A stretch of 64,000 nt of DNA, taken from NCBI RefSeq assembly GCF_020906515.1, contig NC_085850.1, positions 3,658,001 through 3,722,000 on the forward strand. The letters are read 5' to 3'. Below are positions 42,419 to 47,886 of the stretch, one piece after another. Made by a program: the position numbers and the translations under genes. Position 1 is the stretch's first letter. Each line of letters starts with the position of its first letter. The notes below the pieces were generated by a model, which did not search any database, was not told where the DNA came from, and saw nothing but the letters and a program-made list of their open reading frames with translations. The stretch is from Vanrija pseudolonga (Eukaryota > Basidiomycota > Tremellomycetes > Trichosporonales > Trichosporonaceae).

Positions 42419-43753
42419 ATGTCCCTCGCCGCACGGGCCTTCCCCATCCTCTCGCGCGCCGCGTCCACCTCGGCCGCCTCGACTGGCAAGCACAAGGTCG
42501 TCGTCGTCGGTGCCGGCACTGGCGGTCTCACTGCCGCCAACCAGATCTACAACACGCTCAAGGCGCAGGGCAAGACGCTCGCCGACGGCGACATTGCCAT
42601 CATTGACGCGGCCAAGACGCACGACTACCAGCCCGGCTTTACGATTGTCGGCGGCGGCCTCGCCGACAAGACCAAGTTCCGCCGCGACCTCGACTCGATC
42701 ATCCCCAAGCAGTTTGAGCACATTCACCAGAACGTCAAGACGTTCGAGCCCGGAACCAACCAGGTCGTGCTCGCCGACGGAACAAAGGTCGGCTACGAGT
42801 ACCTCGTCGTCGCGCCCGGCATCGAGCTCAAGTGGTCCAAGGTCAAGGGCCTGCCCGAGGCCATTGCCAACCCGGCCCAGTCCAAGGTCGGCTCAGTCTA
42901 CTCGTACGACACGGTCGACAAGGCCTGGGACCTCATCCGCGACTTCCAGCCCGGCAACGGCGAGGCCGTCTTCACGCAACCCTTCGGCCCCGTCAAGTGC
43001 GCCGGCGCGCCCCAGAAGGTCGCCTACCTCTCCAACTCGTACTGGAAGAGCCAGGGCCGCAGCGACATCCACTCGACGTTCGTGACCGGCATCGGCGCCA
43101 TGTTCGGTGTCCCCCACTACGCCAAGGCGCTCAACGCGCTCCGCGAGTCCAAGGGCAACATTGACGCCAAGTTCAACTCGAACCTCGTCGAGGTCAAGGA
43201 CAAGGTCGCCGTGTTTGAGAAGGTTGCCGGCGACGATGTTGGCAGCAAGTACGAGGTGCCCTTCGGCCTGCTCCACGTCGTCCCTCCCCAGGGCGCGTAC
43301 GACTTTGTCAAGAACTCGGCCATCGCCGACGCTGCGGGTTTTGTCGAGGTTGACGACTTCACCACCCAGCACAAGAAGTACGAGAACGTCTTCTCGCTCG
43401 GTGACGCGTCGTCGCTCCCCACGTCCAAGACGGCCGCCGCCATCTCGGCCCAGGCCCCCGTGCTTGTTCACAACCTCCTCACGCACCTCGAGACGGGCAA
43501 GATGGGCTCGGCCCGCTACGACGGCTACACGTCGTGCCCCCTGTTCACTGGCGACAACAAGCTCCTCCTCGCCGAGTTCAGGTACGGCGGTGAGCTCCAG
43601 GAGACGTTTGCCCGCTGGGGCCTCAACCAGGCCAACCCCAACGCCTTCACCTACTACCTCACCAAGGACTTCTTCCCCGCGGCTTACTTTGCCAAGTTTG
43701 TCAAGGGCGAGTGGTACGGCCCCCGCACCATCTTCCCTCCTTCCTACCTCTAA
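42419..43753 (+). CDS. Mitochondrial sulfide:quinone oxidoreductase
   Basis: This FAD enzyme oxidises sulfide to protein-bound persulfide and passes the electrons to ubiquinone in the inner mitochondrial membrane (Hmt2 in fission yeast, SQOR in animals). It is intronless, with 444 residues, the normal length. A presequence (MSLAARAFPILSRAASTSAA) is followed by the FAD motif KVVVVGAGTGGLTAANQIY. Next comes YQPGFTIVGGGLADKTKF, then a redox Cys in PVKCAGAPQKVAYLSNSYW. The second FAD segment is YENVFSLGDASSLPTSKTAA. A second conserved Cys lies in GYTSCPLFTGDNKLLLAEF, with a membrane-associating C-terminus (YLTKDFFPAAYFAKFVKGEW). Both Cys used in the persulfide relay are present. Lack of introns stands out in this intron-rich window. 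Electrons go to the pool that Coq4, 2.7 kb away, helps make. Confidence 0.95.
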   Translation: MSLAARAFPILSRAASTSAASTGKHKVVVVGAGTGGLTAANQIYNTLKAQGKTLADGDIAIIDAAKTHDYQPGFTIVGGGLADKTKFRRDLDSIIPKQFEHIHQNVKTFEPGTNQVVLADGTKVGYEYLVVAPGIELKWSKVKGLPEAIANPAQSKVGSVYSYDTVDKAWDLIRDFQPGNGEAVFTQPFGPVKCAGAPQKVAYLSNSYWKSQGRSDIHSTFVTGIGAMFGVPHYAKALNALRESKGNIDAKFNSNLVEVKDKVAVFEKVAGDDVGSKYEVPFGLLHVVPPQGAYDFVKNSAIADAAGFVEVDDFTTQHKKYENVFSLGDASSLPTSKTAAAISAQAPVLVHNLLTHLETGKMGSARYDGYTSCPLFTGDNKLLLAEFRYGGELQETFARWGLNQANPNAFTYYLTKDFFPAAYFAKFVKGEWYGPRTIFPPSYL

Positions 43754-44860
43754 GGGCGGAGCGGAGCAACAAGCACATTCCGCCAAACCAAAACTTAACA
43801 CACACACTAGCCCCCGGACGGGCGTGTACATAGATAATTTGTAGAGATGAAAATTGGGTTATTGACATGTCTCGGAGCTTATCTCGTCTTGGCACCCGCC
43901 GTGTTCCTGGGACCGAGTTGCGGGGAACGCACATGTGACTGAGCCGTCACGCAGGCTGGCGACGGTGCGTGAGCTTCCCACGAGTGAGCGAGTGAGCGAT
44001 GAGTCTGCATCGCTTGGCGACGAGCAGTCCGAGGCGTTCTGAGCGACGGAGACGCACGGCGCAGACTTGGCGTGGTGTAAGTAGCCGACAGGCGCGTGTA
44101 GCGTCTCGCGTCGGCCAGCCAACCGCATGGCGCGTCAGTCTTCCGAATACCTACCTGGCTCGCTGTGTGCTGCCGCCCCGCCCCGCTCCGCCCTCTCGCA
44201 CCACCGAACTCGTGCCAGCGCACCAGTAGGACGCGCAAGACCCCGAAGCAGCCGCTGCTCGGCAATGTCGGCCACGTTCGTTCGGAATGCCGCGCGCGTC
44301 GCGCCGCGTCGTGCGCCTCGTCGTAATACCGCGTCGTGTTCGGAGGGCATTACGATGTGCCTCGGCCGAGGTGTCATGCGCTTGTGGGCAGGGTGCGTTT
44401 CGGCCCGACGGCGGCGCGTGCGGGGCGTGAGAGGTCGAGGGAGGGCGGTGTGCTCCGTGAGCGAGCTGAAGCCGACGTCGAGCCAGCTCGGCGGCGGCAC
44501 GTGGTACGCACCTCGACTTCGCGACTTCCAGCGACAGACACCTTGGGCCTCTCTGCTTGGAGAGGCCCAAGCCTTCCTGAAACCACACCCAAAGGACCAG
44601 CTGGACCAGAGACCAACGGCCCCAGACATGCCACAGGAAACCACGAAACCACCGCCGCCCAACTGACCGCCCAAGTGAAACACGCCGCCACCGGATCCGC
44701 CGCCACCGCCGCTCGACACCGCCTCTCGACTCGACTCGATCAGGCTTCCTTCCGACGAGGTCATGCTCCCGCTCTGCAGCCTGCAGTATGCACCACGCAC
44801 GCGCGAACCAATCAGCACACGAGCGCTGCACCCTCCCCACACCAAAAAGCAAGCAAGAAG
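43754..44860. other. Gene-free region 3' of SQR
   Basis: This is the first part of a 2.7-kb interval without a supportable protein gene. It contains the SQR 3' UTR, a GCCTCGGCCGAGGTG palindrome near 44360 and a strong 12-bp hairpin at 44542-44571. Frames of up to 258 codons here are low-complexity (Gly/Arg/Ser) and mutually overlapping. Confidence 0.5.
44542..44571. repeat. Perfect 12-bp inverted repeat (hairpin)
   Basis: CTTGGGCCTCTC at 44542-44553 is exactly complementary to GAGAGGCCCAAG at 44560-44571, with a 6-nt loop. The stem is GC-rich and symmetric on both strands. It is not next to a gene end, so a terminator role is not evident. Confidence 0.75.
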
Positions 44861-44863
44861 GAA

Positions 44864-45252
44864 GCGACCGCGCGACGGCGAACAGACGTGCTCTACACAC
44901 GTTGCTCGCCGACGGGTAATGTTTCAAAATAACGTTTGATTTGGGTTGTGCTACGCGGCCTTGCGATACTGCGAATATGGGAGCTTATGAGCGCGCCGCA
45001 GTTGGCTCTGGGGCGACTCGAGTCGGCGCAAAAGCAAGGCGCAAAAGCAAGGCCTGGCCGTCCAATGCACGTCGAGGAAGGAGGCGCCCACTGGCAACAA
45101 AAGAGAATGATGTCGTGACGACCGCGCGACGGCGAACAGAACTGCGGTCGCCCACAGCCTGCCTACCGACGATGAAAGTTCCCAATAACTGTATGTTCGA
45201 GTTTGCTACGCGGCCTTGCGAGGGTGCAAGTTGGGCCGGTTATGAGCGAGGT
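44864..45252. repeat. Diverged tandem duplication, period about 255 bp
   Basis: Two blocks recur in the same order and spacing. GACCGCGCGACGGCGAACAG begins at 44866 and 45120 (offset 254). GCTACGCGGCCTTGCGA begins at 44950 and 45205 (offset 255), each preceded by an AATAAC element and followed about 20-30 bp later by TTATGAGCG. Sequence between the blocks is largely diverged, so the duplication is old or only these blocks are under constraint. Confidence 0.7.
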
Positions 45253-45765
45253 CGCTGCCGCGAACGATGGCTGCTGGGGATGCCGGTTGTAGGGCATGGT
45301 CATGGTCGCGCGTGCGTAGACACATGGGCGATCTGTGTGTGTCGATCAGGGTGCCGTGCCGAGTCGAGTTGGGTGGCAAATTGTCCAAGGCGGTGGCACC
45401 CATACGAGGATCAGGATGCGCGCGCAGGGGCGATGCCTCCTCCTAAAGGAGTGTACGCTCTGCCCCCTGTCACTCAGAGTACCGCCGCGACGATCACAAC
45501 CGCCTCCACTACCACCAATCCGCTCTCCGTCGCCATCACCATTGCCACCACGTGCTGCCAGCCACCTAACATCTCTCGCTCACACAGCACACAAGCCGTA
45601 CACATTCAGTACTCGCTGCTACTCGGGACCTGCGCACTGCGCATGCATAGGATATATCTTGGTCTGCATGGTGCAGGTAGCTTGAACCACAGTTTCAGCA
45701 GTACGTGTCATTGACGACTGGGGCCATTATGACATGGACGCTGTCTAATACTAATGCTCGAATAG

Positions 45766-46178
45766 AAAAAAAATGTATTTATGGTTTGTTTTGGTTTTAC
45801 TACCCGCCTTGGAGGCGGGCAGTGGTTTTGGTTTGGTTTTGTATTGGTGGTTTGTTTTGTTTTGGTGTTTGGTTGGTTTGGTATATTTAGGGTCGTACTG
45901 CGACTTGATGGTTTGGGTTTTATATTTTGGTGTTTGGTTGGTTTAGAGTCGGACCGCGACTTGATTTGTTTGGGGTGGTTTCGGTTGGGTTGGTTTTAGT
46001 TTTTTTGTATTGTTTTTGTTTTTGTATTGGGGTTGATTTCGATTAGGTTTGGTCGTGAATGTTTTTGGGGTGGACAAAGTCCGTCGAATGCGGGTCCGAG
46101 TGGGGATCGAACCCATGACCTAGAGATACGCTTGCGACTTAACCTGGGGAATCCACCCGCTAGGCTAGAGGTCTGCTA
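45766..46178 (-). ncRNA. Candidate Pol III transcription unit or tRNA-derived SINE
   Basis: On the minus strand the 5' head carries an exact Pol III A box, TAGCCTAGCGGG (46156-46167), and a B box, GGTTCGATCC (46104-46113), with about 43 nt between them as in tRNA genes. The T-arm (TGGG-TTCGATC-CCCA) would fold, but the acceptor stem does not pair, so it is tRNA-derived and not a working tRNA. The body (about 45775-46080) is almost only A and C on this strand. It contains two 65-bp-period repeats and a hairpin CCCGCC-TCCAA-GGCGGG (45803-45819). The first run of four or more T on this strand after the head is T8 at 45766-45773, a strong Pol III terminator. A TATA-like TATAGC lies just upstream of the head. 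The result would be a roughly 410-nt RNA. A SINE is the main alternative; I see no clear target-site duplication. Confidence 0.55.
45861..45975. repeat. Two-copy repeat within the A/C-rich body
   Basis: TTTGGTGTTTGGTTGGTTT occurs at 45861 and again at 45926 (period 65). Each copy is followed by a segment that on the minus strand contains AAGTCGC and can form a GTCG/CGAC hairpin, with loop CAGTA in one copy and CGGTC in the other. AAGTCGC also occurs in the tRNA-like head. Confidence 0.65.
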
Positions 46179-46204
46179 TACTCTATGGGTGCCAAAAATG
46201 CACC

Positions 46205-46352
46205 TCGGCATGCATATGAACGGTGCATGCATGCAACACCAAGATGTGGCCTCACTCGCCAACCATGCCCATACATGCATGCATGGAGTGCCGCGACGAT
46301 GCTACACCCCTCCGACAATGCATACACTGTACTACATGCATGCATGCTCACT
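46205..46352. repeat. Cluster of ATGCATGC motifs
   Basis: GCATGCAT-type alternating purine-pyrimidine palindromes occur at about 46208, 46222-46234, 46274-46286 and 46336-46350, spaced roughly 50-60 bp apart. The cluster is between the COQ4 stop and the head of the candidate Pol III unit, so it could be 3' UTR of COQ4 or upstream DNA of the RNA unit. Confidence 0.6.
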
Positions 46353-46422
46353 ACTGACCCGCCACAGTGCACCAAGGGCACTCACGAGCACCCGACACCT
46401 TCTTCCTCACCCTTCCCCACCC

Positions 46423-47385
46423 CTACCACTCCTCCGGCTCGTCGACCCACTCGCCGGTACGTCGCAGCGCCCGCTCCATCTCCCGGAGCTCGCGGTATCC
46501 CCTCCAGCGGGCCTCGACGCCGTTCCCATCGTTCCGGCTCACGCCCAGCTCGCGGCGTAGCTCACCAATACCCTGCTCCCAGCGCTTCTCCCAGTACACG
46601 CCGACGAGCGTGCGTCCGCCGGTACCGGTTCGCAGTGCCCAGGGAACCCAGTCGTCGATCCACCGCTGGCGCATCTTGCCGCTGAGCCGCGCCGGCCCGA
46701 ACAGCGACGACAGGGCCGCCGCCGGCAGGCCCATGTTGGCGTACTCTACCACCTTGAGGGAGAGCTCGTGGGCCAGCGTCGGTGGGAGGGAGAAGAGCGT
46801 GTGGTACAGGTCGTGCGTTTGGCGGTAGCGCAGCATGGTGTAGGCGAGGGAGGGCGGGTCGATGTAGCGCACCTGGGCGTGGTGTCAGCTCGTTCGCGTG
46901 TCAGACGTGGAAGCTCTGCCCACCTTTTCTCGTGCGTCCGGCGTAAACCCGTCGCGGTCCAGCCACTCAACATACTCTCTCCCCACAGTGCCGCGGCGCA
47001 GGCCGCGGAGGTAGTCGAGGCTGACAGTCTTGGATGACAGCGTGGGCCTGTCGCGCAGGATCTGGCGGCCCTCGGGGTGCGACGCCATGGCTTCATGCAG
47101 GCGGGGGAGGAAGGTCGACGCCGTTGACTCGGACAGTGTCGCAATGAGGTCTGGGCGGGACGTGTAGTTGAGCACGCCGACGACGCCCGAGCCGACGGCG
47201 AGGAGTGCGTTCTGCGCGCCGTTGAGGGGGACGTGGTCGGGGTAGTTCTTTGGCGGGGTCGGCGGCGTGGCTGGTGCCGACGACGACGCGTGGCGCCGCG
47301 CCGAAGCAGGGAGGGCGACCGCCGCGCGCGAGCTTGACGCCACGGCGCGCGTGCTGTGCAGGAGCGGAGCGAGTGGCCTGGACAT
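46423..47385 (-). CDS. COQ4: Ubiquinone biosynthesis protein Coq4, mitochondrial
   Basis: Coq4 is needed for coenzyme Q synthesis on the matrix face of the inner mitochondrial membrane. Exon 1 (starting at 47385) encodes a presequence ([20 protein letters not shown], then ARRHASSS). The Coq4 core follows: [20 protein letters not shown], then [20 protein letters not shown] and [10 protein letters not shown]. After one intron near 46875-46920 the second exon has [20 protein letters not shown], with the zinc-site motif HDLYH followed eleven residues later by Glu in [17 protein letters not shown]. All three His and the Glu/Asp ligands are present. The C-terminus (WVPWALRTG, then [14 protein letters not shown]) completes the fold. 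Total is about 300 residues, near the family norm. Confidence 0.93.
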
Positions 47386-47886
47386 GTTTGTTGTGGAGGA
47401 GGGAGCAATGTCGCCTCGACTATGACGAGGTTGTCGGAAAGATCAGTAGTAGCCCAGTCTCCCACGGTGGTGTCCAAGCTCCGCCCGCGGTTGTGCGTGG
47501 ATTGCTGGTGGCTGCAGGGAGAATGAGAACGCCGAGAGATGGCCCGAAGGGCCTGAAAGGGTGGGGTGCAAGACTCCGCGAAAGTGGGCCTCTGCACACG
47601 GCGCGGAGGCCGACCGCGGCTCGCACAGAGTGGGGGACGCCCCAGGCACACTTACATCCGAGATAGTAGAGGCAAAGTTCGGTTGCAGCACCAGTGGAGC
47701 CCACGCCGGGCGGGCCATGCCACCACTCGCGTGAATGGAACTGGCCCGCTCGACGACGACAGCGCACGCAACGAGAGCCGTTCTTTTCTTGGCAGCAGCG
47801 ACCTGCGCGGTGGCGTGCAGACTACTTAACGACGCATCTACTCCTTTCCCCGCGGGAAGAAAAAAAAACAATCACCCACCACCGCG
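47386..47886. promoter_or_regulatory. Divergent promoter region COQ4 / MFS transporter
   Basis: This 501-bp gap separates two start codons. The MFS side ends with GAAGAAAAAAAACAATCACC before the ATG, an A-rich leader. No factor site is claimed and no gene is seen. Confidence 0.45.

What the first reader, a model, noticed from the sequence alone, without database searches (positions are those of the whole stretch)
45766..46178. Possible Pol III RNA gene: tRNA-like head, A/C-rich body, hairpin, T8 terminator
Exact A and B box consensus, tRNA-like spacing, a body on the same strand almost free of G and T, a GC hairpin and then T8 as the first run of four or more T all point to one 410-nt transcription unit. 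The plan (tRNA-derived head plus A-rich then C-rich single-stranded region) recalls primate/rodent BC200/BC1-type RNAs and tRNA-derived SINEs. Nothing of the sort is standard in basidiomycete annotation. Both readings (new ncRNA gene or SINE family) would be new to me.
Basis: partly seen in the sequence, partly recalled or inferred. Interest (0 to 1): 0.8.

Follow-up and report, generated by a model that had tools for sequence, protein, structure and literature searches.

The report
Single-copy candidate Pol III RNA gene
In the genome of a Vanrija-like basidiomycete yeast there is one copy of what looks like a small gene read by RNA polymerase III, with a tRNA-like start, a long A/C-rich unfolded body and a strong stop signal; it could be a new non-coding RNA, but nothing here shows that it is transcribed or conserved.

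Summary
On the minus strand lie an exact A box (46167-46157), an exact B box (46113-46103), a 299-nt body that is 84% A+C, an 11-bp hairpin (45823-45799) and T8 (45773-45766), the first run of four or more T. The combination of boxes and long T run did not occur in 25 Mb of simulated sequence. The body has the strongest A/C skew of the window and of 84 kb of other nuclear sequence. It is evenly A/C, not 'A-rich then C-rich', and hairpins this long are common here.

The head is not a tRNA; only its T-arm end resembles one. Six genome searches found one copy each, and there is no target-site duplication, so a SINE family is not supported. The unit is not telomerase, RNase P, MRP or U6 RNA. Most likely it is a single Pol III type-2 transcription unit (0.55), with a tRNA relic like yeast ZOD1 as main rival (0.27). 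Expression and conservation could not be tested: no RNA data and no DNA of a related genome were available.

The parts
45766..46178 (-). proposed Pol III transcription unit (about 410 nt); the 5' end is inferred, about 11 nt upstream of the A box
   Evidence: anatomy; one place in the genome
46157..46167 (-). A box TAGCCTAGCGG
46103..46113 (-). B box GGTTCGATCCC
46090..46115 (-). stretch like the T arm and 3' acceptor strand of tRNA-Gln(CTG): 21 of 23 within the tRNA, 23 of 26 with the flank of one gene copy
   Evidence: tRNA-Lys(CTT) is nearly as close, 20 of 27 against 21 of 27 for Gln, ungapped
45774..46072 (-). A/C-rich, largely unstructured body
45932..45965 (-). first copy of a 34-nt repeat holding a 5-bp hairpin
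45876..45909 (-). second copy of the repeat (82% identical) holding a 4-bp hairpin
45799..45823 (-). 11-bp hairpin near the 3' end
45766..45773 (-). T8, proposed Pol III terminator
46423..47385 (-). COQ4 gene (upstream neighbour, same strand; two ORF pieces, taken as exons), ending 245 nt before the proposed start; not part of the unit
   Evidence: ORFs; Pfam Coq4, E 9.8e-42 and 1.3e-33, covering profile 108-219 and 1-107 of 221

Best explanation
It is a single-copy RNA polymerase III transcription unit with a type-2 (A box + B box) internal promoter. TFIIIC would bind the A and B boxes of the tRNA-like head, TFIIIB would be placed just upstream of about 46178, and Pol III would read about 410 nt to the T8 tract. 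The product would be a 5' tRNA-like part, about 300 nt of A/C-rich, mostly single-stranded RNA with two small hairpins, a 3' hairpin and a U tail. The function I think most likely, if it has one, is that the unstructured body is a platform for RNA-binding proteins. Shown: the motifs, their order, their rarity, the single copy. Inferred: transcription, ends, and any function.
For: Exact boxes; a 54-nt spacing inside the 43-74 nt seen in this genome's tRNA genes where both boxes were matched by loose patterns; T8 as first T4+. The combination came up 0 times in 25 Mb of null. T8 is longer than the first T run downstream of any tRNA gene examined: of 57, 33 have T4, 9 T5, 1 T6, 1 T7, and 13 have no T4+ within 60 nt. 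The T-arm end scores 40 against the genome's tRNAs; 300 shuffles of the head reached at most 32. The whole RNA folds better than shuffles, z -4.06, 0 of 100. In print, A/B boxes in a 5' leader drive the yeast RNAs RPR1 and SNR52, and no read-through of an 8T terminator was seen in a wild-type strain in S. pombe work (PMC5356446, passages).
Against: No transcript data. No relative's DNA, so no test of conservation. The head fails the tRNA tests, folds no better than shuffles (z -0.61, 42 of 200 as good), and with the B box masked its match to tRNAs (28) is inside the null, so only the B-box end is tRNA-like. Looser A/B pairs alone are expected 26 times per genome size by chance. The hairpins of the two repeats show no compensatory change. 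The body is partly degenerate simple sequence. T8 is followed by CT, which weakens 5T terminators in S. cerevisiae (PMC5356446). I tested no upstream element. A random 800-kb background was asked for and not granted, so the skew is ranked against about 148 kb only.
Confidence: 0.55

Rival explanations
1. A decayed tRNA gene (or a TFIIIC-only site) that still carries promoter boxes, like yeast ZOD1 or the ETC loci, beside a low-complexity A/C tract. It may be weakly transcribed but the RNA does nothing; bound TFIIIC may affect COQ4 or chromatin.
For: The T-arm end resembles tRNA-Gln while the rest of the head does not align beyond the null. PMC5356446 (passages): ZOD1 is an ancient tRNA-Ile gene weakly transcribed by Pol III; ETC sites are occupied by TFIIIC only. 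The body has a 5-nt periodicity.
Against: A decayed gene need not keep exact A and B boxes and a T8 stop about 400 nt away with no T4 between.
Confidence: 0.27
2. A lone or very old SINE, or another small Pol III-promoted mobile element such as a solo LTR with a small RNA gene.
For: A tRNA-like head with an unrelated body is the plan of SINE2/tRNA elements (PMC8143547, passages). [quoted passage not shown] LTR elements with small RNA genes are the subject of PMC10886601 (listing only).
Against: One place in 24.9 Mb in three DNA searches and three 3-mismatch patterns; no target-site duplication.
Confidence: 0.08
3. Chance: the boxes and T8 are coincidental in the 3' UTR or spacer downstream of COQ4, and the A/C tract is a Pol II 3'-UTR feature or simple sequence.
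For: COQ4 ends 245 nt upstream on the same strand. Another T8-or-longer run on this strand lies near 47860. Looser A/B pairs occur 26 times per 25 Mb of null.
Against: 0 in 25 Mb of null for the strict pair and for the pair with a long first T run.
Confidence: 0.1

Closest known systems
ZOD1 / RNA170 of Saccharomyces cerevisiae (orphan Pol III units; ZOD1 is a tRNA relic, PMC5356446 passages)
   Same: promoter boxes outside a working tRNA gene; here also one copy
   Different: here the unit would be about 410 nt with an A/C-rich body and T8; transcription is not shown
RPR1 and SNR52 of yeast (A/B boxes in 5' leaders, PMC5356446 passages)
   Same: promoter head in front of an unrelated RNA body
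   Different: no RNase P match and no C or D box; RNase P RNA lies elsewhere
BC1 / BC200 RNA of mammals
   Same: Pol III boxes at the 5' end, then an unstructured body
tRNA-derived SINEs (SINE2)
   Same: tRNA-like head, unrelated body
   Different: one copy, no target-site duplication

Membership tests
Pol III type-2 gene | A box and B box at tRNA-like spacing | tested here: met
Pol III type-2 gene | oligo(T) terminator as first T4+ run | tested here: met
Pol III type-2 gene | Pol III/TFIIIC occupancy and transcript | not testable with these tools
   no expression or ChIP data
tRNA gene | cloverleaf, with or without intron | tested here: not met
   0 genes by ARAGORN at standard thresholds (bacterial setting, introns allowed); no RF00005 match at E 10. 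Two relaxed runs gave 5 and 2 overlapping calls on the 801-nt stretch, one of each over the head, which I take as noise
SINE | many dispersed copies | tested here: not met
   1 place each (the tool scores best candidates only, so older copies could be missed)
SINE | target-site duplication | tested here: not met
   best flank match is 7-nt CATTTTT
BC1/BC200-like RNA | A-rich then C-rich single-stranded regions (recalled) | tested here: not met
BC1/BC200-like RNA | translation control through bound proteins | not testable with these tools
telomerase RNA | template for the telomere repeat (TTAGGGGG here) | tested here: not met
   repeat arrays at 10 of 11 contig ends fetched; CCCTAA but no CCCCTAA in the unit
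RNase P / MRP / U6 / SRP RNA | match to the family covariance model | tested here: not met
   no match at E 10 in this stretch; P, MRP and U6 over cut-off elsewhere; SRP RNA found nowhere over cut-off (one 13-bit match)
box C/D snoRNA | C and D boxes | tested here: not met
   no RTGATGA, no CTGA in the unit

The most novel reading that the evidence does not exclude
A lineage-specific, functional, single-copy Pol III non-coding RNA of Vanrija or the Trichosporonales: a tRNA-like promoter head drives an unstructured A/C-rich RNA with duplicated hairpins that gathers RNA-binding proteins, a fungal parallel to BC1/BC200 in design, not by descent.
Probability: 0.2. Interest if true: 0.7.

Novelty: new member of a known kind. 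Interest (0 to 1): 0.4.

Why it matters
If transcribed and conserved, it would add an orphan Pol III gene to a fungal group for which my searches of an open-licence library found no paper on such genes (0 papers; 1 paper, on another yeast), and a BC1-like design arising outside animals. It would also give a natural unit for studying Pol III promoter and terminator use in basidiomycete yeasts. If it is only a relic, it is ordinary.

Tried and rejected
SINE family: rejected by copy number and no target-site duplication. tRNA gene with intron: rejected. Telomerase RNA, suggested by a CCCTAA in the body: the telomere repeat is TTAGGGGG and no CCCCTAA is in the unit. RNase P, MRP, U6: elsewhere. 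SRP RNA: not found over cut-off with either model (26 of 159 and 26 of 825 candidates scored); this stretch matches neither. Box C/D snoRNA: no boxes. Overlapping + strand ORF 46027-46560: residues 1-70 searched, no candidate. One exact 28-base head piece in GTDB genomes and one exact 18-base piece in IMG/VR: 0 and 0 matches, as expected for a fungal sequence. Weak Rfam hits (P9, mir-297) are far below their cut-offs.

Full report
Source. The window is C2:3658001-3722000 of a 24.87-Mb genome in 9 contigs. Its sulfide:quinone oxidoreductase protein (42419-43750) is 95% identical to one from Vanrija albida and at most 66% to the other 119 hits listed, so it is a Vanrija species or close kin (Trichosporonales, Basidiomycota). 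C9 (25 kb) holds 13 of the 69 tRNA matches and is taken as mitochondrial by inference.

Observation. All named parts are there. The A/C skew is the strongest of the window and of 83,829 bases of other nuclear loci, mostly tRNA neighbourhoods. A simulated null of 25 Mb (first-order Markov, fitted to the window) gave 0 strict A+B pairs and 0 looser pairs with a long first T run, while looser A+B pairs alone came up 26 times. So the evidence rests on the exact boxes and the combination. The hairpin adds little (28 distinct stems of at least 11 bp in the window), and the body is not ordered A-rich then C-rich.

The head. It is not a tRNA. Its 3' part matches tRNA-Gln(CTG) at 21 of 23 positions, or 23 of 26 with the flank of one gene copy; score 40 against a maximum of 32 in 300 shuffles. 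With the B box masked the best score is 28, inside the null. tRNA-Lys(CTT) is nearly as close over the same stretch (20 against 21 of 27). A tRNA origin of the B-box end is likely, of the rest unproven. The head alone folds no better than shuffles (z -0.61).

The body. Positions 46072-45831, without the 3' hairpin, are predicted single-stranded apart from two small hairpins (z -2.42, 4 of 200 shuffles as good). These lie in a 34-nt repeat, 82% identical, 56 nt apart. The stems GTCG/CGAC are identical in both copies, so the repeat gives no compensatory evidence. A 5-nt periodicity (0 of 1000 shuffles) shows that part of the body is degenerate simple sequence. The whole unit has z -4.06 (0 of 100 shuffles), to which the 3' hairpin probably contributes most (inference).

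Copy number. Whole, head and body each match one place. Three pieces of 26-29 nt with up to 3 mismatches each match one place, and their reversed controls none. The tool warns that it scores best candidates only and skips simple repeats, so old copies could escape. There is no target-site duplication.

Context. COQ4 ends 245 nt upstream on the same strand. Two ORFs tested downstream (44138-44845 minus, 44941-45711 plus) have no Pfam match. A long COQ4 3' UTR reaching into the unit is not excluded.

Other Pol III genes here. RNase P, MRP and U6 RNAs are found elsewhere. SRP RNA was found over cut-off by neither model, in searches that scored 26 candidates each. Of 57 tRNA genes, 44 have a T4+ run within 60 nt downstream: 33 T4, 9 T5, 1 T6, 1 T7. 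T8 is longer than all of these, though it is followed by CT, reported to weaken 5T terminators in S. cerevisiae.

Literature. Papers were seen only as search listings and passages. PMC5356446 (passages): ZOD1, ETC sites, RPR1 and SNR52 leaders, termination. PMC8143547 (passages): BC200, BC1 and SINE layout. [quoted passage not shown] Searches for basidiomycete SINE with Pol III, Cryptococcus Pol III B box terminator, and Trichosporon Pol III noncoding RNA gave 0, 0 and 1 papers; a search on SINEs in fungal genomes listed 10 of 38 papers, no title naming such a gene; a search on Pol III non-coding RNA, B box and fungi listed 3, none on such a fungal gene by title. The library holds open-licence papers only, so this does not show that nothing is in print. 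The A-rich/C-rich layout of BC1/BC200 is recalled.

Verdict. A real and unusual feature, best read as a single-copy Pol III type-2 unit; whether it is an active RNA gene or a relic is open. No RNA and no relative's DNA could be examined. Corrections made on rechecking changed counts and wording, not odds.

Noticed in passing
L047, L049, L051 (C6:513694-514082, C6:1459391-1459781, C1:542439-542834): Three clusters of three tRNA genes (a first tRNA called Ser, Asn or Thr by ARAGORN, then tRNA-Glu and tRNA-Lys) lie 4-10 nt apart, with no T4 run from the first A box to the end of the third gene; the first T4 is 265, 269 and 274 nt on. They look like tricistronic Pol III transcripts. The pairs in L052 and L054 (18 and 12 nt apart) look alike.
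   Followed up: partly
whole genome G000: No SRP RNA was found over cut-off with the fungal or metazoan Rfam model, though RNase P, MRP and U6 were; probably a limit of the search, which scored 26 candidates each.
   Followed up: partly
46183-46350: Upstream of the unit lie repeated GCATGCATG tracts, and a GGTGC-ATTTTTG-GCACC hairpin just before the proposed start.
   Followed up: no
L061-L071, contig ends: The telomere repeat is TTAGGGGG, at 10 of 11 ends fetched; the high-coordinate end of C2 lacks it.
   Followed up: no
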